Translations under genes and position numbers: made by a program
Notes under the pieces: generated by a model
Seen by the model: the letters and a program-made list of their open reading frames with translations, nothing else
The model's database searches: none
Told to the model about the DNA's origin: nothing
Source of the DNA: a virus
IMG/VR virus record: IMGVR_UViG_3300025168_000261
Span: 1-36,337 of that record
Length of the DNA: 36,337 nucleotides
Reading direction: 5' to 3' (one strand)
Part shown: in pieces, positions 705 through 32,710 of the stretch
Numbering within the stretch: the stretch's first letter is position 1
Layout: each line of letters begins with the position of its first letter

Positions 705-880
705 TGAAAATTAATATTAACGGACACATTGAAGTCGGTAAGGAATGGGGGGAAGATACTAATTATTTGCGAGAGCATTTAGAGTATTTGTTTATGGAAT
801 ACCTTCAAGGTGAAGGAATAAGTTTTAAGATTAATGAATGGATAGTGATTGATAATGATAATAGACACAATGGGAAGTAA
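704..880 (+). CDS. Small hypothetical protein (58 aa)
   Basis: A 58-residue reading frame starting MKINING and ending at TAA 878-880. It fills the gap between the MazG-like gene and the DNA polymerase. The start is preceded by GGAGGAAGTTTA, one of the strongest ribosome binding sites in the early operon, which is the main reason to call it a gene. The protein is acidic and hydrophilic, with a predicted strand at the N-terminus (MKININGHIEV) followed by a helix around LREHLEYLFMEYLQ. It overlaps the start of polB by 26 nt. No family was recognised. Confidence 0.6.
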   Translation: MKININGHIEVGKEWGEDTNYLREHLEYLFMEYLQGEGISFKINEWIVIDNDNRHNGK

Positions 881-3296
881 GATACATCTAAGATGGAGAG
901 AAGATGGACATAGAAAGGAACAAACAATAGAGGATTACAAGCCATACTTTTTTGTATCAGCCTCATCTAATTGGAATACTAATAGAGTCATTATTCGTAA
1001 ATACAGTAAGAAGTATTCAATACCTATTGAGATTGAATTGGGCAATTGGACAAGTCTTCATGGTAAAAGGTTAAAGAAAGTAATTTATCATAACCCTAAA
1101 GACCGTTGGACTATTATGAGCCAACTTCATAAAGATGGTATCGAAACCTTTCAAGCCGATGTAGATATTAAACGCCTTTATGCTGTTGATTGTATGGCTG
1201 AGATTAAAGAATACGAACACCGTAAGTGGTATTTCGATATTGAATCTCAAGTCGGAGGAATACATGACGGTAAAACAACTGTGCTTAGTATCTATGATTC
1301 ATTTACCAAAAAGAATACGGTGATGACATGGTTTCCTAAAGAGGCCCATGTAGAAACTGAACTCAATTATGTAGAAGTATATGAAAACGAGACTCAAATG
1401 TTCTACGCTTTTATTCGTATGATGCAGGAACAAGACCCTGATATGATTATCGGTTGGTATGTTCTTGGCTACGATATTCCTCAGATTATCAAGCGTATGT
1501 GTAAATTGGGTATTAACCCTAATCTCATGTCACCTTGTAACGAGGTTAAAGATGTTCGTAGAAAGTTTGCTAATGGTGAACCTGTCGGTTGGCAATTAGG
1601 AAAAGGAACTGGTGAAGAAAACTATTTTAATAGCGCACAACCTATTCGAGGTAGATTAACATTCTGCCTAATGGATAGATTTGAACGCCTTTGGACTGAT
1701 TCTCAAAATGGCACACTACCTTCTCTAAAGTTGGATGATTGTGCAAACCTTGTTCTTGGTAAACGAAAGGTTTCAAGTTCAAAGTTTGAGGACTTGGAGT
1801 TCTATGAAAGAGCGTGGTTGGAAGACACACATACTTATCTCAAATATGCTAAAGTAGATGTAGACCTGTGCGTAAATATTGACAATAAATTAAATGTAAG
1901 TGAAAACAGTCTTGCCCTACAACGACTTATTATATGTCCTTTCGAGAATACATACCATAATTCTCAAATGGGTGGAGTATATTTTATGCGTAAATCAAAT
2001 TGGATTCCCCCAACAGGGGTTAAAACTGAGAAGGAAAGATATGATGGTGCTTTCGTTATGAATCCTGATATTGAGGGAACTTATGGCTTACATGAAAATG
2101 TCGCTGTATTCGATTTTAAATCTCTATACCCCTCAATGATGGCCGCTGTAAATATCTCTTGGGAAACTAAGCGTGATGATGGCTACCCTGTATGGATTAA
2201 CACACCTAAACATTTAGGTGATTTTGAAGAAAAGCCAACTTATTACTACGAAAAAGATACACTTGGGCTTTTACCTCAAGCAGTTATTGACATGATGGCT
2301 TTGCGTGATGAATACAAAACTTTGCGTAAAGAGTCTAAAACTGACGAAGAATATATTAAGTGGGACTCAGCACAAATGGCTACGAAGAGGGCGGTAAATG
2401 CTTTCTACGGTATTCTCGCAAAAGAAGGTTTTGGTTGGGCTGATATGGAAATGGTTCAATCAATTACTGCTTCTGCTCGTCATGCTATGCGTGAAACTGC
2501 TTTTAAAGCGCAAGAATTAGGCTATGAAGTTATTTATGGACACACTGATTCTGTTTTTGTGAAGGTTCGTGATGTAGAAGACGCAAAACAACTAAGAGTT
2601 TTGTTAAATGACTATATTTCACGAGAAATCTTTAGAGAACCAGTAGAATTAGAGTTTGAAAAGTTTGCCAGTAAGTTTTTCCTTTCTAAGAAGAAAAATC
2701 GCTACTGTGGTTATCTTTCTTGGAAGGATGGAGAGTATTTAGACGAAGATAAGTTCTTCGTAATGGGTTTTGAAATGAAAAAATCAAATGAAACAAAAGT
2801 TGCTAAGAATTTCCAAGAAAACTTATTAAAAATGGTTGCATCCTTTGAAGATAAAAAAACTATTATTGATTATTGTAATAGTCAGTATGCAAAGGTCATA
2901 AAAGGTGAACCAAACTTGAAAGAAATTAGTAAAAGAAGTAGACTTCGTAGAAATATTGAGGACTACGAAATGATTGCTGGCGGTTCTGCTGGTATTATTT
3001 ACCATAATCAACAAGGATTGGGTAAAATTAAGAAAGGTGATGCGTATTATTACTTCAAGGTAAATAATACAGACTTGGATGAGAAATGTTATATCGTAAA
3101 AGGTGTATCTAAACCATGTGAATATATTTCGTTCTTGAAGTTCAAGGACATAGAAGGTAAGTTCACACCTGATTGGGAGTTCATCGCCAATGGAGAAATA
3201 ATTAAGAAGGCTATGCTTGTATTTGATAGCATGGAGTGGCCTATAAAACTCATTAAGAAAGACATTAACCAAACAACATTAGAGGAATGGTGGTAA
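855..3296 (+). CDS. polB: Family B DNA polymerase
   Basis: The replicative DNA polymerase of the virus, 813 residues from ATG 855; an in-frame TTG at 849 adds two residues. The exonuclease domain has Exo I as Asp128-Ile-Glu130, Exo II as GWYVLGYD (about 200-207) and Exo III as YAKVD (about 331-335). The polymerase domain has motif A DFKSLYPS at about 420-427, motif B K-x-x-x-N-A-F-Y-G at about 511-519, motif C YGHTDS at about 561-566, and a KKKNRY lysine motif near residue 690. The order and length fit protein-independent (RNA/DNA-primed) family B polymerases rather than the shorter protein-primed group, and an AEP primase gene follows. Two departures stand out: His replaces the first Asp of motif C, and Tyr replaces the usual Asn of Exo II. 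The frame is intact, so these look like lineage features and not decay. Confidence 0.95.
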   Translation: MIIDTMGSKIHLRWREDGHRKEQTIEDYKPYFFVSASSNWNTNRVIIRKYSKKYSIPIEIELGNWTSLHGKRLKKVIYHNPKDRWTIMSQLHKDGIETFQADVDIKRLYAVDCMAEIKEYEHRKWYFDIESQVGGIHDGKTTVLSIYDSFTKKNTVMTWFPKEAHVETELNYVEVYENETQMFYAFIRMMQEQDPDMIIGWYVLGYDIPQIIKRMCKLGINPNLMSPCNEVKDVRRKFANGEPVGWQLGKGTGEENYFNSAQPIRGRLTFCLMDRFERLWTDSQNGTLPSLKLDDCANLVLGKRKVSSSKFEDLEFYERAWLEDTHTYLKYAKVDVDLCVNIDNKLNVSENSLALQRLIICPFENTYHNSQMGGVYFMRKSNWIPPTGVKTEKERYDGAFVMNPDIEGTYGLHENVAVFDFKSLYPSMMAAVNISWETKRDDGYPVWINTPKHLGDFEEKPTYYYEKDTLGLLPQAVIDMMALRDEYKTLRKESKTDEEYIKWDSAQMATKRAVNAFYGILAKEGFGWADMEMVQSITASARHAMRETAFKAQELGYEVIYGHTDSVFVKVRDVEDAKQLRVLLNDYISREIFREPVELEFEKFASKFFLSKKKNRYCGYLSWKDGEYLDEDKFFVMGFEMKKSNETKVAKNFQENLLKMVASFEDKKTIIDYCNSQYAKVIKGEPNLKEISKRSRLRRNIEDYEMIAGGSAGIIYHNQQGLGKIKKGDAYYYFKVNNTDLDEKCYIVKGVSKPCEYISFLKFKDIEGKFTPDWEFIANGEIIKKAMLVFDSMEWPIKLIKKDINQTTLEEWW

Positions 3297-4681: not shown

Positions 4682-5018
4682 AATTCTCAAAGAAATTACA
4701 GAATACAAGTGGACATTCAAGGAGTTAATGAAAATGGATGATGTTATATTTAATATTATAAACAACATGGAAGAACATTCTTGGGAAGAGATGCTTGATT
4801 TCTTAGGTCAAGAACAGAAAGACTTAGTGAAAGGTTGGTGGACTGAAAAGGCTACCTTTTATGCAAAACAGCAGATGCTTGAACTTATTGACGAAGCACC
4901 AGTAATGCTTTCTCAAGTTTCTCAAGTTCCCCCTACAATAGAAGAACAGAAAGATAAGATAACTCTTACGAAGGAACAGTTAAAGAAGCAGATTAAAAAA
5001 GATACAAAGGTGTTGTAA
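4668..5018 (+). CDS. Hypothetical early protein (116 aa)
   Basis: A 116-residue mainly helical protein starting MIGSKILKEITEYK. I take ATG 4668, not the further in-frame start at 4587, because it has the upstream GGGGGA site and because the longer form would be read out of frame through the conserved C-terminal cysteines of the nuclease gene. The body is rich in Glu and Lys with aromatic residues (WTFKELMKMDDV, SWEEMLDFLG, KGWWTEK), and the last 25 residues are a Lys-rich helix. A short Pro/Gln/Val linker (SQVSQVPP) separates the two parts. Function is unknown. Its place between a DNA nuclease and the primase suggests a replication accessory protein, by inference only. Confidence 0.65.
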   Translation: MIGSKILKEITEYKWTFKELMKMDDVIFNIINNMEEHSWEEMLDFLGQEQKDLVKGWWTEKATFYAKQQMLELIDEAPVMLSQVSQVPPTIEEQKDKITLTKEQLKKQIKKDTKVL

Positions 5019-5120
5019 ATGAAAAAGAAATGTAGATACTGTAAGGCAGAACTTACAGACAAAGATAAAGAACTTTGTTCACTATGCGAATCAAAGGACT
5101 TTTTAGATTTAATGGATTAG
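5019..5120 (+). CDS. Zinc-ribbon microprotein (33 aa)
   Basis: A 33-residue reading frame from ATG 5019 to TAG 5118-5120, starting directly after the stop of the gene before it and preceded by AAGGTGTTGTAA. It has two Cys pairs, C-R-Y-C near residue 5 and C-S-L-C near residue 22, spaced as in a minimal zinc ribbon, followed by an acidic helix. It fits exactly between its neighbours, with the primase start 8 nt downstream, so it is likely a real gene. The partner is unknown; a role next to the primase or polymerase is possible but unproven. Confidence 0.6.
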   Translation: MKKKCRYCKAELTDKDKELCSLCESKDFLDLMD

Positions 5121-5128
5121 GTGATGAG

Positions 5129-6172
5129 ATGAATTATCCGAGAGAAATGTGGGCAGGTAGCCCATTGGAAAACGCAATACAACCGAGAAGAGTTGTAGTG
5201 CAAACCAAAGAAAAATACAAACAATTCGTTAAAGCGCATAATGGTCGCATGAATGTTTATACTTCTGTTTATGATTATGAGGAGTTTTCAAAAGACAGAG
5301 GACTTGAACATACTGTAATTATTGATAGACTGTTTTTAGATATTGATGCACATGGAGATGAATCTTTAGAAGAGGCGTGGGGAGACATGAAGATACTACA
5401 TAAATGGCTTACAGAAAACAACTACAAACACAACATGGCTTTTAGTGGTAGAGGTTTCTACATATTCGTTTATGGTAAAAGAACTTTTGATTTGAGAAGA
5501 GTAAAGGCTTTCTTTAACATATGTCACGATGTATGCGGTAAGTCTCCTCGATTAGATAACCGAGTAATAAATACTGCTCGATTGAGAAGAACTCAAAACA
5601 CTTTTCATTTAGGTGCTAAGTTATTTTCTATAAATCTAATTCGTAGTGATTTAAAAAAGCCGTTGTCGTCTATTACCAAATTAGCAAAGAAACCTCGTAG
5701 GCAACATCCTATTTGGTATGGTGAAGGTTTAGTGGAATGGCCTCAAGTTAAGGAAATGGAAGCGGCAGAAATTGAAATTGATTATGTTGAAAGTCCGGGT
5801 GATTTACCTATTCTTCCGTGTCTTAATGCGGCAGTAATGACTCATAACCCATTACATGAATCTCGACATTACTTAGTTCAATGGTATAATGAGTTCTTAT
5901 CTGACTTAGCAGTTGTTGAAAAAGGTTTAGACTGTTCACCGAGAGAAGTAGGTGGAGATGCACTTGTAGATATTATTGGTATTATTTCAGGTGAGATTAA
6001 AAAGATTGCATCCAATGAAGATGTATGGATTGACTATGATGAAAGAAAGACTTTAAGTGGTGTTTCATATGTCGTTAAAAAGCGATATATGGCCCCCTCC
6101 TGTCAAACTTTAATCAGTAAAGGGTATTGCATAGGTAAGTGTTGGAGATACCCACAGGGGGCTTTAGAATGA
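5129..6172 (+). CDS. Archaeo-eukaryotic primase (AEP) small-subunit-like protein
   Basis: A 347-residue DNA primase. The core motifs are present in order: DRLFLDIDA with Asp71 and Asp73 as metal ligands, SGRGFYIFVYG at 106-116 as the nucleotide-binding S-x-R/H-x block, and RLDNRV with Asp143 as the third acidic residue, followed by RLRRTQNTFH in the place of the R-L-x-R-x-P-x-S-x-H block of AEP primases. The C-terminus (about 320-342) carries APSCQTL...GYCIGKC, a Cys cluster like a metal site. The start is ATG 5129, preceded by GGTGATGA; an in-frame ATG at 5084 would overlap the zinc-ribbon gene. It would make primers for the PolB encoded upstream. The stop overlaps the next start (ATGA). Confidence 0.85.
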   Translation: MNYPREMWAGSPLENAIQPRRVVVQTKEKYKQFVKAHNGRMNVYTSVYDYEEFSKDRGLEHTVIIDRLFLDIDAHGDESLEEAWGDMKILHKWLTENNYKHNMAFSGRGFYIFVYGKRTFDLRRVKAFFNICHDVCGKSPRLDNRVINTARLRRTQNTFHLGAKLFSINLIRSDLKKPLSSITKLAKKPRRQHPIWYGEGLVEWPQVKEMEAAEIEIDYVESPGDLPILPCLNAAVMTHNPLHESRHYLVQWYNEFLSDLAVVEKGLDCSPREVGGDALVDIIGIISGEIKKIASNEDVWIDYDERKTLSGVSYVVKKRYMAPSCQTLISKGYCIGKCWRYPQGALE

Positions 6173-9274: not shown

Positions 9275-9826
9275 TTAAAAAAATTTAGATATTAAATCTA
9301 AGGTTTCTTCTGCATATTTCATATTCTTGTTGTGGTTGTTAATTATTCTTCTAAATCTTTTCCAGTCGCCATACGGCCACCCTTCGCTGTCTTCATCTTT
9401 CGCATATTTATATTCACTATAAATTCTTTCCAAATCCCTTTTAAGTCTTCGTTGATATTCGTCTAATTTTGACATCGAGTTTTTATATTTGCGCCTATCT
9501 TCTACTGATGTCTTTTTATTAGGTTTTACAGGTGGAAGTTTCGTCTTTAATTTTTCTATTGAAATTATATATTCTTCAAGTTCTTTTAAATAAGTATATA
9601 AAAAATTTTCATCTTCGACTAATTTCATATCATATTTTTTAGGTCTGTTGGGAAGTCCTTGTAAAGTTCTTCTTATTTGCCTACCCATTTTTCTGTCTTT
9701 AATTTTTGAAGTTTTCACCTTGTCTAATATTTTCTTGTGCGCCTCAATAGTATCAGGGTTATTATGTTTACGACCTGCACGAACATAATGTTCTCGGTTG
9801 TATTTTAGAATGTTCTCCCAACTCAT
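9275..9826 (-). CDS. W-x-x-ILK-tagged basic protein (183 aa), unknown function
   Basis: The last gene of the late operon; 183 residues, strongly Lys/Arg-rich. It begins MSWENILKYN, the shared late-gene N-terminal motif. After a linker there are long helices (about 85-150, DENFLYTYLKELEEYIISIE and KLDEYQRRLKRDLERI), probably a coiled coil, and a C-terminal helix. The high positive charge suggests contact with DNA or an acidic partner. It overlaps the gene before it by 4 nt (ATGA) and has AGGTGAAGACGG as ribosome binding site. No family was recognised beyond the N-terminal motif. Confidence 0.7.
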   Translation of the reverse strand: MSWENILKYNREHYVRAGRKHNNPDTIEAHKKILDKVKTSKIKDRKMGRQIRRTLQGLPNRPKKYDMKLVEDENFLYTYLKELEEYIISIEKLKTKLPPVKPNKKTSVEDRRKYKNSMSKLDEYQRRLKRDLERIYSEYKYAKDEDSEGWPYGDWKRFRRIINNHNKNMKYAEETLDLISKFF

Positions 9827-10152
9827 CCGTCTTCACCTATTTTTTTCCATCCGGTAATTGCAGAATCAATAGAACTCGGTATAGCATAACCTTTTTTATC
9901 GGTTAATAATTCTTTTAATTTTCCATATCCTTCGGGAATATATCTCATCACCATCAGTTCAAATTTACCTTTTAAATTTGTTGAAGGTTTTTGTTCCGTT
10001 ATTTCTATATATTTAGGAAACAGTTCTATAATTTCTTCAAACTCATACACATCTTTTCTACCCGTTTCTTCTAAATGATTACTAATTGCCTGTCTTACAG
10101 CAGAACCTATAATTTTCATTGCTTTTCCTTTTAATATATCTTGCCAACTCAT
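9823..10152 (-). CDS. W-x-x-ILK-tagged protein (109 aa) with domain shared with the 29798-30796 gene
   Basis: A 109-residue protein beginning MSWQDILKGK. Residues 14-50 (KIIGSAVRQAISNHLEETG ... EFEEIIELF) and a later PEGYGKL block match by eye the N-terminal region of the protein encoded at 29798-30796 (KVIGS...HVEKTG...YIIEDVI, then PEGYERV). The two proteins are therefore paralogous over about 90 residues, not merely alike in the first eight. The domain looks helical and winged-helix-sized. The start overlaps the preceding stop (ATGA), with AGGTGAGCAGAA upstream. Function is unknown. Confidence 0.75.
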   Translation of the reverse strand: MSWQDILKGKAMKIIGSAVRQAISNHLEETGRKDVYEFEEIIELFPKYIEITEQKPSTNLKGKFELMVMRYIPEGYGKLKELLTDKKGYAIPSSIDSAITGWKKIGEDG

Positions 10153-10256
10153 TTCTGCTCACCTGTGACAAAATCTTTCTTTGTTTTCTTCTCGACCTCA
10201 TCAACCTTTTTTGATTGGTCGTTAAACCAAGCATCTAAATAATTACAGCGAGTCAC
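10149..10256 (-). CDS. Microprotein (35 aa), GTG start
   Basis: A 35-residue frame from GTG 10256 to TGA 10149-10151, beginning MTRCNYLDAWFNDQ and ending in a Lys/Glu-rich helix. It is supported by an AGGTGA six bases before the GTG, by a GTGA overlap with the preceding stop, and by an ATGA overlap with the next start, so it fills the gap exactly. The N-terminus has an aromatic pattern (L-D-A-W-F) but not the W-x-x-ILK motif. Function is unknown. Confidence 0.5.
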   Translation of the reverse strand: MTRCNYLDAWFNDQSKKVDEVEKKTKKDFVTGEQK

Positions 10257-10402
10257 TTTTCTTCACCTAATTGTTCTTTATAATACTTCAAGGCATCTTT
10301 AGCCTTAGTATCATTGGGGTCTCTTTTAAGTCTACGCTCATACTCAGCAATTTTTTCCTTAAAATAAGTTTCAGCATCCTTTTTCAAAGTATCTCGCCAC
10401 AT
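10253..10402 (-). CDS. W-x-x-(I/T)LK-tagged microprotein (49 aa)
   Basis: A 49-residue frame from ATG 10402 to TGA 10253-10255, with GAGGA upstream. It begins MWRDTLKKDA, a variant of the shared late-gene N-terminal motif with Thr in place of Ile. The rest is a highly charged helix with Ala at regular intervals (YFKEKIAEYERRLKRD, then TKAKDALKYYKEQL), like a single TPR-type hairpin. It starts 2 nt after the stop of the two-TM protein gene and ends inside the GTG of the next microprotein. It is nearly all motif plus one helical hairpin, so it may be a minimal member of the tagged set. Confidence 0.6.
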   Translation of the reverse strand: MWRDTLKKDAETYFKEKIAEYERRLKRDPNDTKAKDALKYYKEQLGEEK

Positions 10403-10404
10403 AT

Positions 10405-10848
10405 TTATTCCTCAGTATCTTCGCCCATCTTATGAATAGGTGTAAGTTTGACAATAGTTTCCTTATGCTTCTCAACGATGTGCTTATGTTCTTGAGCCGC
10501 TGTAAGCATTTCCTGTTCATGCTTTTGTCGAGCCTTTTCTAAATCAATTACATGTTGCTTATTTAGTGCATCTCTTTCTCTTTCGTGTTCCATTTCAACA
10601 CCCATGTTATCAATTTCGATAGTCTGTTCAGACTCCCACATTCGTAAAACTGTTTGTAATGCTGGTGCTGAAACACCACTGATGATTGCGATAAGTGCAA
10701 TAAAGCCGTCAAGGTTTGTTAATACAACATCAGGCTTCCATATACCCATACCTACTACTGCACCTGCGGCAAGAAGCCATAGATAAATTGCTGGCAATAC
10801 TGTTCGTTTAACCATTCGGTCGTTAAATGTATCTTTTGTTTCTTTCAT
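10405..10848 (-). CDS. Two-TM membrane protein with C-terminal coiled coil, candidate holin-like protein
   Basis: A 147-residue protein. Two hydrophobic segments lie at about residues 18-37 (LPAIYLWLLAAGAVVGMGIW) and 48-68 (GFIALIAIISGVSAPALQTV). They are followed by a long charged helix (about 75-130) rich in His, Glu, Lys and Gln, a probable coiled coil facing the cytoplasm. Size, two TM segments and position after the fibre genes and next to another small membrane protein suggest a holin-like role in host exit, but no catalytic lysis gene is present to confirm this. The start has GAGGAGAATAAA upstream. Confidence 0.65.
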   Translation of the reverse strand: MKETKDTFNDRMVKRTVLPAIYLWLLAAGAVVGMGIWKPDVVLTNLDGFIALIAIISGVSAPALQTVLRMWESEQTIEIDNMGVEMEHERERDALNKQHVIDLEKARQKHEQEMLTAAQEHKHIVEKHKETIVKLTPIHKMGEDTEE

Positions 10849-10849
10849 T

Positions 10850-11113
10850 TTATTCTCCTCTTAAATTTTTTTGTAATCTTGCGAGACCTATTTTTAAATC
10901 CCTACCTGTGCTATGTATATTGAATCTACCATCCTTTCTTGCGGCTACGGTAATACTGGAGGTAGCGGGAACATGAGACATATTTCTTTCATTTAAAAAA
11001 GTAATATACTGCTGGGGATATACAGGTGCGTTCCACATAAGAATATATTCTTCTAATAAATCTAAATGCTTAGGTCTGACCTTTACACGCTTTAAAATAG
11101 ATTCCCACATCAT
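10850..11113 (-). CDS. W-x-x-ILK-tagged small protein (87 aa)
   Basis: An 87-residue protein beginning MMWESILKRV, with the shared motif followed by a basic stretch (KVRPKH). The middle (LDLLEEYILMWNAPVYPQQY, about 17-36) and the end (a small strand region, then LKIGLARLQKNL) suggest a compact alpha/beta or winged-helix-like domain. It overlaps the preceding stop (ATGA) and has AGGAGTG upstream. It lies between the two small membrane protein genes. No family was recognised. Confidence 0.65.
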   Translation of the reverse strand: MMWESILKRVKVRPKHLDLLEEYILMWNAPVYPQQYITFLNERNMSHVPATSSITVAARKDGRFNIHSTGRDLKIGLARLQKNLRGE

Positions 11114-25898: not shown

Positions 25899-28160
25899 TT
25901 ATCCTTGAATAATCCAATTTGTTGCATGAGTGCATGTGTGCAACTCAAGAGGTTGAATAGTCCAATTAACTGTAATTGGGCCTTTGTCATTTGTAAGTGG
26001 GAAGTCTGCACTTGTCACCATGTAGTCCTTGAAAACCATTGACAATGTTTCATCATTGGTTGTAGTGTCTTTGGTAAAGGTAAGTTTAATTTGATTGCCG
26101 TCAGTTCCATTGAGAGAGGTAGCGGCATTGTTTCGCAGTTCTTCAAAGAGAAGATTGTCAGTGACTAATCCTGTAAAGGAGAGACTATAAACTCGTTGAC
26201 CTGCTATATGTGTTTGACTGTTCTTATCATAGCGACCAATAAATCTCTTTGGTTGTAGGCTGTTTGAAATATCCAAAGTCATGTTCTCGATGCGAATATA
26301 TTCCTGTCCAAACATTTCAATAGTGCCATCGGAGAAGAAAAAGGGTCGTAATTGTTCTTCGCTAATAGATGATTGCCCCCCTGCTGGAGAACCAAAGTTA
26401 ACCCAATCTTGAAGGTCGGTAGTTTTGTTTGCTGTCACATAATTGTTTGGTGCAGTAAATGTATTCTTTGAGTTAAAATTAACTGTCATTTTCATTTCCT
26501 GTCCGGCATCTGCTGTAAGATTAACACTTTCAACTTGACAACCGGGGTAAATCTTAGAATAAACTGTTTCCGAAATATCTCTTGCTACGCTGTTAACAGT
26601 AGTCGAAGTAATATCAACTTCTTCCGTAGCCATACTTGCTGGCTTTTTAAGTGTGTATTCAAGAGCAAATGAAGGTAGGTCTGCTGTATTATTTTCACTA
26701 AAGGTGTAAGTAATTTTATTTGTTTGAGTAAGATTAACACTTTTAATATTTGTATCATCCATACCCTTTTGTTTATTTAGTGGGGGGCAGACTACATTAC
26801 CAATTGTTCGGTGAAAACCTGCTGTATTTACATTAGAATCATAGATAAAATTATTTCCAGTAAGACTGGTTGAAGTAAAGAAATCATCCGAATCCATTGT
26901 CACCGAACCTTGATTAGATACTGTGGTAATTTCTTTTGAACCTAATGCGTAGTAAAGCCATGAAAAGTTATTTGCAGATAAGGAAAAAGAACCATTGGAG
27001 GTAGTTTCTGCACCTTTAAATTGATAAGCCATATTTCTACTGCCTGAAGAAAGTGCAATTTGTTTCATCTCAACTGCTGTTTGAGGAATTGAAACTGAGT
27101 CGGTAAGTCCAATCCAAGTATCGGAAAGAAGTCGAGGATTAGAACCGTCTTTAGGTGCTGGAACAGGTGCGCCAATATGTTGAATAACACCGTAGTAATT
27201 TGTTGCTGTTGATGCAATTGCTGAATCAATAGTATTTGCTACTGTAATTGTAGTAGCCGTATTTGAAACAATCATGGCCTTGTCAGTAAAAGTGTTGTCA
27301 CTGTTTAAATAAAATTCTAAAATACACCCACGATATAAATTAGGAACAAGAAGAAGTTGCCCTGTAAAAGAGGAGTTAAGAGTAAAAACTGCATTGATAG
27401 CAGGAACTGTGACAAGAGCAATTTCAATAACAGGGTTTGTTCCCGATGAAGTAAATGTCACTTCATCTCCAACAGAACTAATATTATATGAACTACCTCC
27501 GGCTACAACTGTGACGGCTGTAATTGCACCACCAGCAGTATTTGAAGTTACGGTTACACCGCCATTAACATCTTCTGTTGTATTTGCAACATAACCACCT
27601 ACGGTATTTGTAATAGTAAGAACACCTAATGCTCTTGAAACTGAAACATCTTCACCACTTAGGGCTTGAAGAACCATTTCTGCAATTTGACTTCCAGAGG
27701 TTCCCGAAGCAATTGAAGTAGAAACCGTAATATCTCTATCTGCGCCTGTGGCTTTAGGAGATTGGTCTGAATCATTTAAAATAACTGCAACTGTTTCTGT
27801 TCCATCAACACCTGCAATTGAAAGAGTAAAAAATCCATCCTGTCCTCCCGGCCCTACTCCATCTTCGTAATTAGTGGCAGTAGCATCTATAAAAGTTAAA
27901 ACTGTTGTATGTGCTGAAAGGGTTAAAAGTAATTCTCCACCTGTTCCTGTTGCAGGTTGTCCTGCAACAATACCATCACTATCAATTGTTGTTTGACTTG
28001 CTAAAATTTGAGTTCCGGCAGTAGTAGCAGTAGCAGAAGCAATTGCACCAGTAGAACTTGAAGCATTTGCCACACTCGCAAATGTTCCTAAAAATATATC
28101 TTGTTCAGGTATCATAGATACCATCGCCCCGCTGTCCATCCATACTTCGTTACTTACCAT
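25899..28160 (-). CDS. Major tail tube protein with inserted beta-modules
   Basis: A 753-residue protein at the place of the tail tube gene, directly before the chaperone. The C-terminal two thirds read as a tail tube protein: TDSVSIPQTAVEMKQIA, GSFSLSANNFSWLYYALG, YPGCQVESVNLTADAGQEMK, ENMTLDISNSLQPKRFIGRY, RVYSLSFTGLVTDNLLFEEL and a terminal GPITVNWTIQPLEL. Near the N-terminus, a tube-like start (MIPEQDIFLGTFA) is followed by about 260 residues of Thr/Gly/Ala/Val-rich beta-modules, then the tube fold resumes at about residue 300. The modules are probably displayed on the tail surface. The start has AAAGGTGACTAAAA upstream. Confidence 0.8.
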   Translation of the reverse strand: MVSNEVWMDSGAMVSMIPEQDIFLGTFASVANASSSTGAIASATATTAGTQILASQTTIDSDGIVAGQPATGTGGELLLTLSAHTTVLTFIDATATNYEDGVGPGGQDGFFTLSIAGVDGTETVAVILNDSDQSPKATGADRDITVSTSIASGTSGSQIAEMVLQALSGEDVSVSRALGVLTITNTVGGYVANTTEDVNGGVTVTSNTAGGAITAVTVVAGGSSYNISSVGDEVTFTSSGTNPVIEIALVTVPAINAVFTLNSSFTGQLLLVPNLYRGCILEFYLNSDNTFTDKAMIVSNTATTITVANTIDSAIASTATNYYGVIQHIGAPVPAPKDGSNPRLLSDTWIGLTDSVSIPQTAVEMKQIALSSGSRNMAYQFKGAETTSNGSFSLSANNFSWLYYALGSKEITTVSNQGSVTMDSDDFFTSTSLTGNNFIYDSNVNTAGFHRTIGNVVCPPLNKQKGMDDTNIKSVNLTQTNKITYTFSENNTADLPSFALEYTLKKPASMATEEVDITSTTVNSVARDISETVYSKIYPGCQVESVNLTADAGQEMKMTVNFNSKNTFTAPNNYVTANKTTDLQDWVNFGSPAGGQSSISEEQLRPFFFSDGTIEMFGQEYIRIENMTLDISNSLQPKRFIGRYDKNSQTHIAGQRVYSLSFTGLVTDNLLFEELRNNAATSLNGTDGNQIKLTFTKDTTTNDETLSMVFKDYMVTSADFPLTNDKGPITVNWTIQPLELHTCTHATNWIIQG

Positions 28161-28176: not shown

Positions 28177-28770
28177 TTACAAACTGTTGGCGAATCTTTT
28201 CATAGTTACATTTATTCTATATCCAAATATTCTTGATTTTTTGTCATTAGCGTCAGTTCGGCTTCCCAGTATAAGATGTTTAATGTTTTCTTCTAAACTA
28301 CCTGCACTTCGGAACCAGCCCCTCCGGTTTGTTTCAATGATGTATCGCACTATCTTATAAAGGTTTTCTATTCTGTCACGACCAAAAGTAGAACCAGTAG
28401 GTGCAACTCTCGCATTATCATTAGTTCGTCTATCATCTTGTTTTGTCCTAATACTTACAGACATTTCATGTGTCTCATTTCTTACAGACCAATCACGAGT
28501 AGGATATTCAACAGTTTGAGAGTTTTGCATTACTACAATAACATCTAAAGAAGGTGTAACTCCGTCTGCTGTAACTTCTGTAGCGGCACTAATTCTTACT
28601 CTATTACCACCTCTTCCCGGTTTTGCAGTATTACGAGTAGAACTCATATCTCGTATATCCATAATCTGAGGTTTAACTCTATGAATTGCAGGAATAGCAG
28701 AACCTAAAGCAGTAACAGCGGTATTCCAATATTCGTCAAGTAGTGTAACTAAATATGTAACTTCATCCAC
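28177..28770 (-). CDS. Tail terminator / tail completion-like protein
   Basis: A 197-residue protein starting with GTG 28770, preceded by GAGGAGAAATC. The central strands (SLDVIVVMQNSQTVEYPTRD, THEMSVSIRTK) and the following helix (IENLYKIVRYIIETNRRGW), ending in the strand YRINVTMKRFA, give the alpha/beta plan of tail terminator or head-closure proteins, which stop tail growth and join it to the head. Its position directly before the tail tube gene supports this. The acidic tagged gene overlaps it by 8 nt. Confidence 0.65.
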   Translation of the reverse strand: MDEVTYLVTLLDEYWNTAVTALGSAIPAIHRVKPQIMDIRDMSSTRNTAKPGRGGNRVRISAATEVTADGVTPSLDVIVVMQNSQTVEYPTRDWSVRNETHEMSVSIRTKQDDRRTNDNARVAPTGSTFGRDRIENLYKIVRYIIETNRRGWFRSAGSLEENIKHLILGSRTDANDKKSRIFGYRINVTMKRFANSL

Positions 28771-29605
28771 GATTTCTCCTCTCCCTTAATTCTCTTTCTG
28801 TAATCTCTTCCGTATAGTCTTCGGTTGTTCCATATCCACCCATTACCTCATCACCTACACCCATTTCGTAGTCCATACTTTCCGCATACCATTTGTCATA
28901 AATAATTTCTTGAACTAATGATATATCTTCTAATGAATTTTTTGCCTGTAGTTCGGCAGTTCTTTGTAATATAATGTCTTTCAATAATTTAATTTCTTCA
29001 AGACCTGTATCTCTTATATCTATCCCCATTTCATAAGCAATATCAGACCAAGTTAAATTAGCAATTCCCTCCATATCCCTTAATTCAACACTATCCATAT
29101 TATACATTAATTGGTCTAAAGTATCAATAAACTTTTCAGAAATAGACATTCTATTCTGTGTGTTTTCTCTATCCAGTTCTAATTCAAATAAATAACTATT
29201 AATCAACTCAAGCATTTCTTCTAACTGTTCTGATAAAATTTCTATATCAGTAACATTTACTCTTCTTTTTTCCTTTTCAATTTTATGTTGAGTTAATAAA
29301 TTAAGTATTTCATCGGGTTCTAATTTCAAGATTAATGGAGATAATTCAACTAATAAACCATTTGCGCTATCATATGTCAAGTTAATTTCTTCCACATATT
29401 CTAGGGTAACTGTAACATATTTTAAAATTTTAGGATAACCATTAACAATATTATTAATATTATTTGTTACAATATTTTTTAAATATTTTTCAATTTCAAC
29501 TACTTTATATTCAGGTATTTCAGGGGGTATAAAATCATCAGACAATGGATTATTTTCAGGTTCTATGTCCTGTATTTCTATTTTTAAAATTGACTCCCAA
29601 TTCAT
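28763..29605 (-). CDS. W-x-x-ILK-tagged acidic protein (280 aa)
   Basis: A 280-residue, very acidic and Ile/Leu/Asn-rich helical protein beginning MNWESILKIE. After the motif comes a Pro/Asp/Glu linker (residues 10-35), then helices separated by two short strands (KYVTVTLEYVEEINLTYD). The C-terminus is acidic and then Arg-rich (RELRERRNRG). A strong GAGGAGG precedes the start, which overlaps the previous stop by 4 nt. It lies between connector and tail terminator, where head-completion proteins are found. No known family was recognised. Confidence 0.7.
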   Translation of the reverse strand: MNWESILKIEIQDIEPENNPLSDDFIPPEIPEYKVVEIEKYLKNIVTNNINNIVNGYPKILKYVTVTLEYVEEINLTYDSANGLLVELSPLILKLEPDEILNLLTQHKIEKEKRRVNVTDIEILSEQLEEMLELINSYLFELELDRENTQNRMSISEKFIDTLDQLMYNMDSVELRDMEGIANLTWSDIAYEMGIDIRDTGLEEIKLLKDIILQRTAELQAKNSLEDISLVQEIIYDKWYAESMDYEMGVGDEVMGGYGTTEDYTEEITERELRERRNRG

Positions 29606-29808
29606 TCAAAAGCCTCCTCTATTCTTCTTTGAATAACTTGAACAACTTCCTGTTCGATAATCTGTTCCATTATTTCATCGCTCATTTTTTCACCCAAAGT
29701 TCTTTCGGTGTAGTCCTGTATATCCTCATTTTGCTGAACAACAGTTTCTAATATAGTCTCCATATCGAGTTGAACCATTCGCATTTTTTCTAAAATTTTA
29801 CGAAACAT
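29602..29808 (-). CDS. Small helical protein with diverged W-x-x-ILK-like start (68 aa)
   Basis: A 68-residue, almost wholly helical, Glu/Met/Gln-rich protein beginning MFRKILEKM. The start resembles the shared motif with Phe for Trp (F-R-K-I-L-E). The rest (LDMETILETVVQQNEDIQDY and on) looks like a coiled coil. It overlaps the preceding gene by 11 nt and the following by 4 nt. The ribosome binding site is weak, so it may be translated by coupling. Function is unknown. Confidence 0.6.
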   Translation of the reverse strand: MFRKILEKMRMVQLDMETILETVVQQNEDIQDYTERTLGEKMSDEIMEQIIEQEVVQVIQRRIEEAFE

Positions 29809-30796
29809 CTCTACGACCCCGTTTTCCTCTCACTGGTTTTAATTTACCAGACTTATCTTTTAATTTTTTTTGTGTTTCAAGAAGTTTTATTTTCTTTTCT
29901 TCTGCTTCTCTCATTTTAGACCCAAGTTCAGCCGCTTCTCTTAAATTTAAATCTCTGGATTCTTGGTCTTTAATTGGTATTTCTCTTGGAACTAATTTAG
30001 CCTTTTCCCTATCCCATTGAGAGTCGGGATTAGCGGCTTCTAATTGACGAATATTTTCTTCTTCTGTAAGTTCTTCCTCATCCTTCTCTCTTAAATCTCT
30101 GGATTCTTGGTCTTGTTCTACTAATTCAATTATCATATCTGTAATTCTATTTCTTAATTCAGACTCACTATTAAATACTTCATTATCTGATAATTGAATG
30201 TCTCCCTCTACTGTTGTAAAAACATAGTCTCCTTCTTGTTCTTGAAAAAATACATGGACATATTTTCTACTTAAATCCTTTGCTCTAAATGAAACATTTA
30301 ATGTAATTTTACCATCACGGTCTTCACCATCTACAAGTCTAACATTTGTTCTTCTACCATATTTATCTAAAGGAACTTCTGCTCTAAGATTTCTTCGTAG
30401 TCGGGATTTAAAATTTTCCCAATCACGAAGTTTTAAATACTCGCCGGAACTTGTTTTTAACTTTTCAAGGTCTTTTTGCTGGTTTAATTTAACCATTTTG
30501 GCTGGTATCGTGGGCCGTGTCTTCCTAACTTTTTTCGTCACTCGTTCATATCCTTCAGGAAAACTTTTACCAATAAATATATTCATTTTTTCCTTAATTA
30601 TAGCGTAATGAATCATATAGTGTCTTACCTGTTTGTTATGTAGTTTTTTATATTCATCAAATATACTATTTATTACATCTTCAATTATATATTCATTTTG
30701 ATAACCTGTTTTTTCCACATGTTCAAGAAGTAATTTTTTAAAAATACTTCCTATAACTTTCGACTTGTTGGCTATTTTAAGAATATCCGACCACAT
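29798..30796 (-). CDS. W-x-x-ILK-tagged basic protein (332 aa) with internal repeat
   Basis: A 332-residue protein. I take ATG 30796 (MWSDILKIANKS) and not the in-frame TTG at 30805, because all tagged proteins have their Met one or two residues before Trp. Residues 13-90 share a domain with the 9823-10152 protein (KVIGS...HVEKTG ... PEGYERV). The middle (about 120-215) has strands such as KITLNVSFRAKDLSRKYVHV, and the C-terminal third is a charged helix with two copies of DQESRDL. The end is basic (KLKPVRGKRGRRDVS). It follows the zinc-module protein gene by 2 nt. Function is unknown. Confidence 0.7.
   Translation of the reverse strand: MWSDILKIANKSKVIGSIFKKLLLEHVEKTGYQNEYIIEDVINSIFDEYKKLHNKQVRHYMIHYAIIKEKMNIFIGKSFPEGYERVTKKVRKTRPTIPAKMVKLNQQKDLEKLKTSSGEYLKLRDWENFKSRLRRNLRAEVPLDKYGRRTNVRLVDGEDRDGKITLNVSFRAKDLSRKYVHVFFQEQEGDYVFTTVEGDIQLSDNEVFNSESELRNRITDMIIELVEQDQESRDLREKDEEELTEEENIRQLEAANPDSQWDREKAKLVPREIPIKDQESRDLNLREAAELGSKMREAEEKKIKLLETQKKLKDKSGKLKPVRGKRGRRDVS
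29947..30114. repeat. 24-bp direct repeat within one gene (29947-29970 and 30091-30114)
   Basis: Exact 24-base copies 144 bases apart, ttaaatctctgg followed by attcttggtctt, in the same frame. They encode the two DQESRDL blocks of the tagged 332-aa protein. Exact identity at DNA level suggests a recent internal duplication. Confidence 0.85.
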
Positions 30797-30798
30797 AA

Positions 30799-31620
30799 TT
30801 ACCAATCCCTACAAGCCATACAACGGGCTGAATAATCCCCACCTTTACATGTAGAACATTTATGTCTTGCTCTAAAAGATTTTTTACGCTTAGTATTTCC
30901 TCGCTTCCCTGTTACTGAAACACCTCTTTGCCCCCAATGAACACGCTCATATCCACCTTTACCATTAGGAACGCAAGCCATCCATTTTTTACCCTTTCGA
31001 GTAGAACTTGCCTTTTTTGTTCTTTTATTACATTGTGATGAAGCCTTAGAAATATCTTTTCCATCACATCCACAGCCGCAACCTGAATCCATATTTTCAA
31101 TATCAGGTTTAGATTTAGGTGGCTTATCTTTATCTTTGTATGGAATTTGTAATATCTGTTTTATCTTGTCGGAAAGAGTAGGGTTATTTTCATATTCGTT
31201 TTCCCCTGTTACATAATCTATGTCCTTTTCCATTTTCGGACTTATTTTTTTAGGCTTTACTTTACTGTAATCCTTTGCTTTTATAATTTCATATGTGGTT
31301 AATCTGGAATTAGGTCTGCTGGTTATTCTACCAAGATTTTGAAGTTTTCCATCTCTAATTAATTTACCAAATGCAGGTTTAATTTGACCTGTAAATTTAT
31401 GATTAAGAAATTGAGTAAAACCCGCTAATCTTCCGTCTTCGGTTTCCGACCAATTGTTTTTCATGTATTGAAAAATTTCTTTTTTATTTCCTTCAATATC
31501 TTCAATAGTCACGCTTTCCAGTGGACTATTTTCTATATAATTACTAATACCCTCATATACCTTTTGTCTGTATATAGGGTAATTTACTCTACTACTCCCT
31601 TTTAATATTTCTTCCCACAT
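30799..31620 (-). CDS. W-x-x-ILK-tagged protein with Cys-rich C-terminal module (273 aa)
   Basis: A 273-residue protein beginning MWEEILKGSS; ATG 31620 is preferred to an in-frame GTG at 31629, which lies inside the connector gene. Residues 20-80 (KVYEGISNYIENSP ... VTIEDI ... IFQYMK) resemble the domain of the two other tagged proteins (9823-10152 and 29798-30796). A Pro/Lys/Asp linker with the odd run SGCGCGCDG leads to a C-terminal module: KGKKWMACVPNGKGGYERVH, then RKKSFRARHKCSTC and ARCMACRDW. This resembles a conserved 'V-P-x-G-K-G-x-x-x-V-H-[WF]-G ... F-x-x-R-H-x-C' module of marine phage proteins, probably zinc binding. It follows the connector gene directly and overlaps nothing. Confidence 0.7.
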   Translation of the reverse strand: MWEEILKGSSRVNYPIYRQKVYEGISNYIENSPLESVTIEDIEGNKKEIFQYMKNNWSETEDGRLAGFTQFLNHKFTGQIKPAFGKLIRDGKLQNLGRITSRPNSRLTTYEIIKAKDYSKVKPKKISPKMEKDIDYVTGENEYENNPTLSDKIKQILQIPYKDKDKPPKSKPDIENMDSGCGCGCDGKDISKASSQCNKRTKKASSTRKGKKWMACVPNGKGGYERVHWGQRGVSVTGKRGNTKRKKSFRARHKCSTCKGGDYSARCMACRDW

Positions 31621-31621
31621 A

Positions 31622-32710
31622 TCAATCACTATCCAAATAATAAACCACTCGGCGTTTCATGCGTAGAATTTTGTCTACATCTGCTTTATAGGAATCGTAT
31701 TTACTTTTTAAATCTATACCATTAGTAGAATCATTTCCTAATAAGACATAAGAATCATCACTTGCAATAAGTTCACAGGCGGTAAGTTTTGTAGCGGCAT
31801 CTTCAATAACTGCTGGAACACGAATATTTCCACAAGTATATGTAACCTTTACTGAATGTTTATATTGTGAAGGAAATTCACTACGGAAAAAAATATCTCC
31901 CATATCTTTCATATCCCACCATGCGGCATTACGGTCATAGTCTTCTTTATTTGTAAATTGAGTGCGAGAATTAGTTCCCCCGTTAACTGCAAGTGTGCAA
32001 TTAGAACCATCTGAACCGGGGAGTAAAGAAACAATTGTAATTGTTTCATCTTCTTCTAAATTAGCATAAAAGAAGTCGGATATATTATACGCGTTGCCTC
32101 CATCTTGTAAAGCCTTTTTAGCAGTTCCACCTGTAAAGGGGGCAGTAATTGTAGGCACTTGTTCATTAATAAGGTAGCAAATATCCTGTGCAGTAGTTCT
32201 TTGTCCGTAAGCCTTGTTAAACTTATCATTATCAGTGATACCTGAACTGTCAGGTGATAGAGTCCAAGTTAATCCTCCACCTGTAAGGACAATTGATGTA
32301 AGATTAGTATAATCATCTATTGTTAATGTTGCTACTACCGAGGCAATATCTGTATAAACTGAACCATCCCAAATAGCAATTCGCAAAATCTTACGAATAT
32401 TTTCGTGATGTAGTCTTATTTTTCCAATGTAATCTTCATAAAAATATACCTGATTATTACTGCGAGCAAAATCGTGAAATTCATTTTCTATTAAATTGTC
32501 TCTCCAAGAAGAGTTTGTAAATTCATCAATATAATCTTCAGACCTACGCATTAAATCTCCAACTTCTGCTAAAGTGGGAGAAGTAGAAGAAGAAAAATCA
32601 GCAATACCTAATAGTGCGGCCACCTTTACAGCAGTTGTATATGCCCCACCACCTGTTGTATAATTTACAACATTAAGTCCGGAATCAGAAGGAGTCATCA
32701 TCTTAACCAT
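31622..32710 (-). CDS. Head-tail connector (gp6-like adaptor) with a central insertion
   Basis: A 362-residue protein. VAALLGIADFSSSTSPTLAE near the N-terminus with RRSEDYIDEFTNSSW, and IRVPAVIEDAATKLTACELI near residue 320, form the helical frame of the HK97 gp6/SPP1 gp15 connector family, which docks on the portal. Connectors of that family are normally 100-200 residues; here the middle (about 120-270) is a beta-rich insertion (LTIDDYTNLTSIVLTGGGLT and on). The insertion includes FTGGTAKK, encoded by a 25-bp stretch that recurs in the hub gene. The start overlaps the preceding stop by one base (TAATG), with GGTGATTTA upstream. Confidence 0.75.
   Translation of the reverse strand: MVKMMTPSDSGLNVVNYTTGGGAYTTAVKVAALLGIADFSSSTSPTLAEVGDLMRRSEDYIDEFTNSSWRDNLIENEFHDFARSNNQVYFYEDYIGKIRLHHENIRKILRIAIWDGSVYTDIASVVATLTIDDYTNLTSIVLTGGGLTWTLSPDSSGITDNDKFNKAYGQRTTAQDICYLINEQVPTITAPFTGGTAKKALQDGGNAYNISDFFYANLEEDETITIVSLLPGSDGSNCTLAVNGGTNSRTQFTNKEDYDRNAAWWDMKDMGDIFFRSEFPSQYKHSVKVTYTCGNIRVPAVIEDAATKLTACELIASDDSYVLLGNDSTNGIDLKSKYDSYKADVDKILRMKRRVVYYLDSD
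32113..32137. repeat. 25-bp repeat shared with the hub gene (18667-18691)
   Basis: The stretch cctttttagcag followed by ttccacctgtaaa is identical at 32113-32137 and 18667-18691, in the same orientation and frame. It encodes FTGGTAKK on the minus strand in both the connector and the giant hub gene. Confidence 0.8.

What the first reader, a model, noticed from the sequence alone, without database searches (positions are those of the whole stretch)
28763..31620. Shared N-terminal M-(x)-W-x-x-I-L-K peptide on a block of consecutive late genes
Four consecutive genes between connector and tail terminator start with MWEEILK, MWSDILK, MFRKILEK (variant) and MNWESILK, while the bodies behind the motif differ in length and charge (68 to 332 residues, basic to acidic). 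The motif sits within one or two residues of the start in each. Together with the second cluster at 9275-11113 there are eight such genes. A shared short N-terminal peptide on otherwise different virion-region proteins suggests a common docking or sorting signal, for example for targeting into the prohead (compare the capsid-targeting sequences of T4 internal proteins), or binding to one common partner such as portal, scaffold or membrane. The first is a known concept; its use here is inference.
Basis: partly seen in the sequence, partly recalled or inferred. Interest (0 to 1): 0.88.

Follow-up and report, generated by a model that had tools for sequence, protein, structure and literature searches.

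The report
Shared address tag on archaeal-virus proteins
Tailed viruses of marine archaea put the same eight-residue tag (M-S-W-x-x-I-L-K) at the start of 10-20 otherwise unrelated late proteins per genome, most likely as an address label that loads these proteins into the virus head, as phage T4 does on a much smaller scale.

Summary
Seven window genes (not eight) start with M(x)Wxx[IT]LK. The motif never occurs inside a predicted window gene. The 68-aa MFRKILEK gene is a look-alike.

In 15 related records, 209 of 896 late-strand genes carry the tag at the N-terminus and 0 of 672 early-strand genes do. The tag is hundreds of times denser at the N-terminus than inside the same late proteins. 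All multi-tag records belong to one group, the magroviruses (tailed viruses assigned to Poseidoniales archaea). The tag sits on about 300 unrelated protein families and on none of the core head or tail proteins.

Two results point to function. Some bodies are shared with marine bacteriophages, which lack the tag. The DUF5754 body of window gene 30799-31620 also occurs in T4-like head gene clusters. There it sits behind a leader resembling T4's capsid-targeting sequence with a prohead-protease site (68 of 71 loci; no W-tag in any). In magroviruses the same body carries the W-tag (21 of 22) and no such site.

Best explanation: a capsid-targeting (cargo-loading) peptide, analogous to T4's but without the T4 cleavage site. 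Packaging itself is not shown and the docking partner is unknown. I found no description in the papers searched.

The parts
31600..31620 (-). tag MWEEILK on gene 30799-31620 (273 aa; helical domain, disordered linker, C-terminal DUF5754 domain)
   Evidence: PF19058 E=1.3e-6; AF2 model; body found behind T4-type leaders elsewhere
30799..31620 (-). tagged gene, inferred cargo, DUF5754 C-terminus
30776..30796 (-). tag MWSDILK on gene 29798-30796 (332 aa)
   Evidence: tagged orthologs in G046/G047
29798..30796 (-). tagged gene, inferred cargo, no family match
29582..29605 (-). tag MNWESILK on gene 28763-29605 (280 aa)
   Evidence: MIWESILK ortholog in G046
28763..29605 (-). tagged gene, inferred cargo; the gene at the same place in G047 (345 aa) is untagged
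29602..29808 (-). look-alike MFRKILEK, 68 aa: NOT a tagged gene; conserved neck-region gene by position
11090..11113 (-). tag MMWESILK on gene 10850-11113 (87 aa)
10382..10402 (-). tag MWRDTLK on gene 10253-10402 (49 aa)
10129..10152 (-). tag MSWQDILK on gene 9823-10152 (109 aa)
9803..9826 (-). tag MSWENILK on gene 9275-9826 (183 aa)
31622..32710 (-). untagged conserved head-tail connector gene (context)
   Evidence: homolog of the G001 connector-position gene, which matches HVTV-1 downstream of its MCP
25899..28160 (-). untagged major-tail-protein-position gene (context)
   Evidence: synteny

Best explanation
The motif is a capsid-targeting (cargo-loading) peptide of magroviruses. It is a short N-terminal helix capped by Ser/Thr/Asn, with Trp, Ile and Leu on one face (i, i+3, i+4), and it docks on one common component of the assembling head: scaffold/protease, major capsid protein or portal. 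By this it brings a large, fast-changing set of soluble late proteins into the prohead, from where they would enter the next host with the DNA. Shown: an N-terminal modular tag, late genes only, one virus group, hundreds of unrelated bodies, core head and tail proteins untagged, same bodies with and without the tag, and one body clearly (a second in a single pair) carrying this tag here and a T4-type targeting leader in T4-like phages. Inferred: helix formation, the docking partner, packaging, and delivery to the host.
For: (1) Late N-termini 209/5376 positions, late interior 16/194,284, early N-termini 0/4032; 310/1202 against 0/48 in a tag-blind sample. (2) 537 distinct tagged ORFs fall into 298 body families, 225 of them singletons; 128 representatives align only at MSWxxILK. 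(3) In the 14 related records and the window, detected terminase, portal, protease, MCP, tape measure and tail homologs are never tagged. (4) Body swap: DUF5754 in 71 non-magrovirus loci has [LIVM]xE[AGSK] at the leader/body junction in 68 and the W-tag in 0; in 22 magrovirus loci it has the site in 0 and the W-tag in 21. Neighbours in L467 and L469 are T4-type portal, adaptor, protease, scaffold and MCP. A second body: MNWFKVVKK-NPCWDGYEQ (L111) and MKLIIENWRKYIAEDE-NPCWDGYEQ (L573). (5) T4 internal proteins start MKTYQEFIAEA / MKTFKEFTSTT. In T4 the first 10 residues suffice and residues 4 and 7 decide targeting (PMC9026906); W3/I6 has the same i, i+3 spacing. (6) Bodies shared with marine podoviruses lack the tag there and sit beside large late genes. 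(7) No tagged protein has a TM-like stretch. (8) Tagged bodies include PAP2, GNAT, 2H phosphoesterase, metallopeptidase and pentapeptide domains, plausible for delivered effectors.
Against: No virion proteomics exist for these uncultured viruses, so nothing shows that tagged proteins are in the particle. The tag has no T4-type cleavage site (12/209 against 35/622 background), so the mechanism cannot be identical to T4's. The tag helix is predicted with low confidence (pLDDT<50). The partner is unknown. Serine-2 is AGT in 93/104 tagged genes (33/78 in untagged late genes), hinting at a further nucleotide-level bias. Tagged small proteins are not more positively charged than untagged late ones.
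Confidence: 0.72

Rival explanations
1. The tag docks late proteins to a virion part outside the capsid lumen (neck, tail or baseplate) or to a virus-encoded assembly chaperone, not into the prohead.
For: In the window lineage three tagged genes lie between connector and tail genes; tagging is restricted to the virion-gene strand.
Against: In most records tagged genes cluster around terminase and portal and the tail module is almost tag-free. The shared DUF5754 body carries a T4-type prohead leader with a protease site in T4-like phages, which points to the head interior.
Confidence: 0.12
2. The tag is a docking or degradation signal for a cytoplasmic partner during late infection (RNA polymerase, clamp, proteasome, host factor) and has nothing to do with the particle.
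For: The partner is not known. Some tagged bodies look like enzymes (PAP2, GNAT, 2H phosphoesterase) that could act in the cytoplasm.
Against: Early-strand genes, which carry replication and take-over functions, never have it (0/672). Body swap with T4-type prohead leaders.
Confidence: 0.1
3. It is a nucleotide-level translation-initiation or regulatory signal of late genes that happens to encode MSWxxILK.
For: Ser-2 codon is AGT in 93/104 tagged genes against 33/78 in untagged late genes.
Against: All six Leu, three Ile and both Lys codons are used. Conservative amino-acid swaps (I/V, L/I) are tolerated. The start-to-Trp distance varies. Five late proteins carry the motif at their C-terminus, and L459-type proteins carry it internally at the DUF5754 junction. 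Most late genes lack it.
Confidence: 0.03
4. It is a membrane-binding amphipathic helix for late assembly or lysis at the membrane.
For: W/I/L on one helix face with a lysine resembles membrane-surface helices.
Against: 0/209 tagged proteins have TM-like segments against 85/687 untagged late ones. The helix is only about two turns long. Positions next to Trp are mostly acidic or neutral (D/N/E at W+2 in 156/209).
Confidence: 0.03

Closest known systems
T4 capsid-targeting sequence (CTS) of internal proteins IPI, IPII, IPIII (and Alt)
   Same: About ten N-terminal residues shared by sequence-unrelated late cargo; N-cap-type residue, aromatic, two polar, two hydrophobic residues (TYQEFI / SWQDIL); the targeting residues of T4 (4 and 7) have the spacing of W3 and I6; bodies are diverse and fast-changing.
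   Different: No (L/I)xE prohead-protease site after the tag; Trp and Lys nearly fixed; 10-20 tagged genes per genome; T4's leader is known to direct packaging, this one is not yet tested; HK97-type head with a different protease family.
T4-like CTS leaders on DUF5754 and related bodies in environmental T4-like contigs (L466-L469, L496-L574)
   Same: The same cargo body, in a head gene cluster next to portal, protease, scaffold and MCP.
   Different: Leader MNFxxLVEEILxEA with a protease site instead of MSWxxILK.
Encapsulin cargo-loading peptides
   Same: Short terminal peptide that loads diverse cargo into an HK97-fold shell (published concept).
   Different: Usually C-terminal, cellular compartments, one or few cargos; motif differs. 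Five late proteins here do carry the motif C-terminally.

Membership tests
T4 capsid-targeting sequence | short N-terminal peptide shared by otherwise unrelated late proteins | tested here: met
   209 tagged genes in 15 records, 298 body families
T4 capsid-targeting sequence | aromatic plus hydrophobic residue three positions later decide targeting (T4 residues 4 and 7) | tested here: inconclusive
   spacing present (W, I at +3); effect on targeting not testable here
T4 capsid-targeting sequence | ends in a prohead-protease site (L/I)xE and is cleaved | tested here: not met
   LxE[AGS] after the tag at background rate, 12/209 against 35/622; no conserved column after K8
T4 capsid-targeting sequence | tagged protein is in the mature head and is ejected | not testable with these tools
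   no virion proteomics for uncultured magroviruses
T4 capsid-targeting sequence | T4-type core with gp21/gp22/gp23 | tested here: not met
   G001 protease and MCP hit other families (phrog_23555, phrog_24667), not phrog_207/phrog_138 as in the T4-like contigs
Encapsulin cargo-loading peptide | C-terminal peptide on cargo | tested here: not met
   N-terminal in 209 cases, C-terminal in 5
Encapsulin cargo-loading peptide | binds inner face of an HK97-fold shell | not testable with these tools
   MCP present and related to Druskaviridae MCP; no complex prediction available
Magroviruses (Magrovirales) | PolB replisome and virion genes on opposite strands, MCP related to Druskaviridae, genome about 90-110 kb | tested here: met
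   ICTV profiles PMC12999244 and PMC10768690; no named magrovirus record was held for direct comparison

The most novel reading that the evidence does not exclude
Archaeal tailed viruses have a general, T4-cleavage-independent cargo-loading code: an eight-residue terminal peptide that packages 10-20 different proteins per virion, drawn from a pool of hundreds of families, some exchanged with bacteriophages, in which moving between virus groups means swapping the group's address tag (MSWxxILK in magroviruses, a T4-type CTS with protease site in T4-like phages).
Probability: 0.6. Interest if true: 0.88.

Novelty: new variant of a known kind. Interest (0 to 1): 0.8.

Why it matters
It would give a sequence-readable list of the proteins a tailed virus carries into its host. 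Magrovirus late genes are mostly of unknown function, and the tag would pick out hundreds of candidate delivered effectors (host take-over, counter-defence, DNA-binding) from sequence alone. It would extend capsid targeting, tested mainly in T4, to archaeal viruses, and would supply a short tag for loading proteins into HK97-type heads. The body swap between T4-type leaders and this tag makes the idea directly testable.

Tried and rejected
MFRKILEK (29808) as a family member: rejected.
T4-type cleavage after the tag: at background rate.
Membrane targeting: no TM-like stretches.
Basic-charge cargo (as in T4 internal proteins): no difference in median net charge from untagged late proteins.
Poseidoniales host genomes could not be reached.
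Tag in the related Druskaviridae: none in the late genes read from HVTV-1.
Pfam/PHROG scans of tagged proteins: mostly no match.
AF2 models: window 273-aa protein and a 716-aa tagged protein gave only medium confidence; fold searches had no significant hit.
Named magrovirus records OR863078, PP497040 and ON649702 were not in the collections.
Literature: no hit for six tag spellings; magrovirus papers found do not mention it. Two key papers (PMC5434244, PMC11706807) were not held, so prior mention there is not excluded.
The KKDACY body is a late module in T4-like phages but not cleanly behind a CTS, so it was not counted as a swap.
Full report
What is there. The window is a 36,337-bp IMG/VR virus record with replication genes on the plus strand (PolB at 855-3296) and virion genes on the minus strand. 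A six-frame scan finds W..[IVLT][LI]K nine times; seven are at residues 2-3 of minus-strand genes and two are outside predicted genes. Seven genes are therefore tagged: 31620, 30796, 29605, 11113, 10402, 10152 and 9826. I reject it.

More than chance. The same pattern with the I and L codons swapped gave 55 stretches in the whole collection, never more than one match each. In 46 records the motif lies on one strand per record, and the backward control is nearly empty. In 15 records read in full, the motif occurs at late-strand N-termini in 209 of 5376 positions, inside late proteins in 16 of 194,284, and at early-strand N-termini in 0 of 4032 (Fisher p about 1e-56 per gene). Because these records were found through the tag, I also took 80 loci by terminase, blind to the tag: 310 of 1202 genes on the terminase strand have the tag in their first 50 residues, 0 of 48 on the other strand do, and 35 of 38 loci of 15 kb or more have at least one.

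Which viruses. Almost every multi-tag record encodes one terminase family (57-100% identity). Two long records without it encode the same PolB family. Single-match records have neither. The MCP is a distant relative of Druskaviridae MCPs. The closest full relative of the window, G046 (90.8 kb, with the same terminase), has 13 tagged genes and G047 has 19.

The tag. Its profile is M-[STN]-W-[KEQF]-[DNE]-[IV]-[LI]-K, with nothing conserved after K. Ser/Thr/Asn/Asp/Gly precede Trp in 81% of cases (40% at residue 2 of untagged late genes). With Asp/Asn/Glu at W+2 this looks like a helix cap, and W, I, L would share a face (inference). AF2 draws residues 2-8 of the 31620 protein as a helix, at low confidence and apart from the body. 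All synonymous codons of I, L and K are used, so the peptide is what is conserved, although Ser-2 prefers AGT. Five late proteins carry the motif at the extreme C-terminus.

The bodies. 537 distinct tagged ORFs form 298 families, 225 of them singletons. 128 representatives align only at MSWxxILK. Most have no known family; the exceptions include PAP2, GNAT, 2H phosphoesterase, metallopeptidase, pentapeptide, DUF5754 and DUF6321. Detected core head and tail homologs are untagged throughout. Homologous genes can be tagged in one virus and untagged in another, for example the g6095 and g2813 families. None of 209 tagged proteins has a TM-like stretch against 85 of 687 untagged late ones.

The body swap. 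Two body families are shared with marine podoviruses at about 45-80% identity; the homologs I read lack the tag. In P12053L the homolog sits beside very large late genes. The DUF5754 body of window gene 30799-31620 is the key case. In magroviruses it follows a W-tag. In T4-like contigs it lies between a head-tail adaptor gene and protease, scaffold and MCP genes (PHROG-confirmed) behind leaders such as MNFQLLVEEILTEA-GKC. Of 71 non-magrovirus loci (48 distinct leaders, many without markers in reach), 68 have [LIVM]xE[AGSK] at the junction and none a W-tag; of 22 magrovirus loci, none has the site and 21 have the W-tag. The one exception is cut off by a contig end. A second body shows the same swap in one pair: MNWFKVVKK-NPCWDGYEQ (L111) and MKLIIENWRKYIAEDE-NPCWDGYEQ (L573).

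Comparison with T4. T4 internal proteins begin MKTYQEFIAEA or MKTFKEFTSTT (read from NC_000866). Published work says ten residues suffice for packaging and that residues 4 and 7 decide targeting, 8 and 10 processing (PMC9026906), and describes T-even internal proteins as highly diverse with only the CTS conserved (PMC3012670). The magrovirus tag has the same order of residue kinds and the same i, i+3 spacing, but no protease site, and its head proteins fall in other families. It works like a CTS; it is not filed as a member of the T4 CTS family.

Verdict. The likeliest mechanism is a cargo-loading peptide for the prohead (0.72). Shown: the tag, its late-gene and group restriction, its modularity and the body swap. 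Inferred: the helix, its docking site, packaging and delivery. The partner and the presence of tagged proteins in virions remain untested.

Noticed in passing
G001 5-679 (L175) and 83832-89600 (L179): Seven tagged genes share a second segment right after the tag (NIQISSQRTSSKDYV), then diverge; similar second segments appear in G002 (SVQSSRAGMAP) and G017/G011 (NVITQSRVKEIED).
   Followed up: no
G029 51753-53015, G002 89966-90589, G017 48848-49351, G011 62559-63062, G007 5018-5518: Five late proteins carry W..[IVL][LIV]K within their last 18 residues (e.g. ...EKSWHLILKRY), against 0 in early proteins: possible C-terminal version of the tag.
   Followed up: partly
L572 4508-5806: One 433-aa viral protein strings together several bodies (including DUF5754, KKDACY and NCGCGxDPCETYG types) that are separate tagged genes in magroviruses, joined by linkers with LxE-like sites: possibly a cargo polyprotein.
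   Followed up: partly
L459, L460, L462, L464 (DUF5754 loci): A magrovirus protein has an N-terminal domain fused in front of DUF5754 with the motif kept internally at the junction (SIQWFALVKAQC).
   Followed up: no
G002, G004, G007, G011, G015, G017, G026, G045 (about 120-aa gene after the post-portal gene); G006 and G029: A conserved gene of about 120 aa starts MTWD[YF]Y...FILKEEKK in eight genomes but with the canonical tag in G006 and G029 (shorter, about 110 aa).
   Followed up: no
all tagged genes of 15 records: Codon 2 is AGT in 93 of 104 tagged genes starting M-S (33 of 78 in untagged late genes): extra nucleotide-level bias at the start, unexplained.
   Followed up: partly
L188 4903-5304 and homolog in OQ999401 (L434 5656-6390): A tagged cysteine-rich family is annotated as high-potential iron-sulfur protein in other phages and in one lies directly upstream of the capsid maturation protease genes.
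   Followed up: partly
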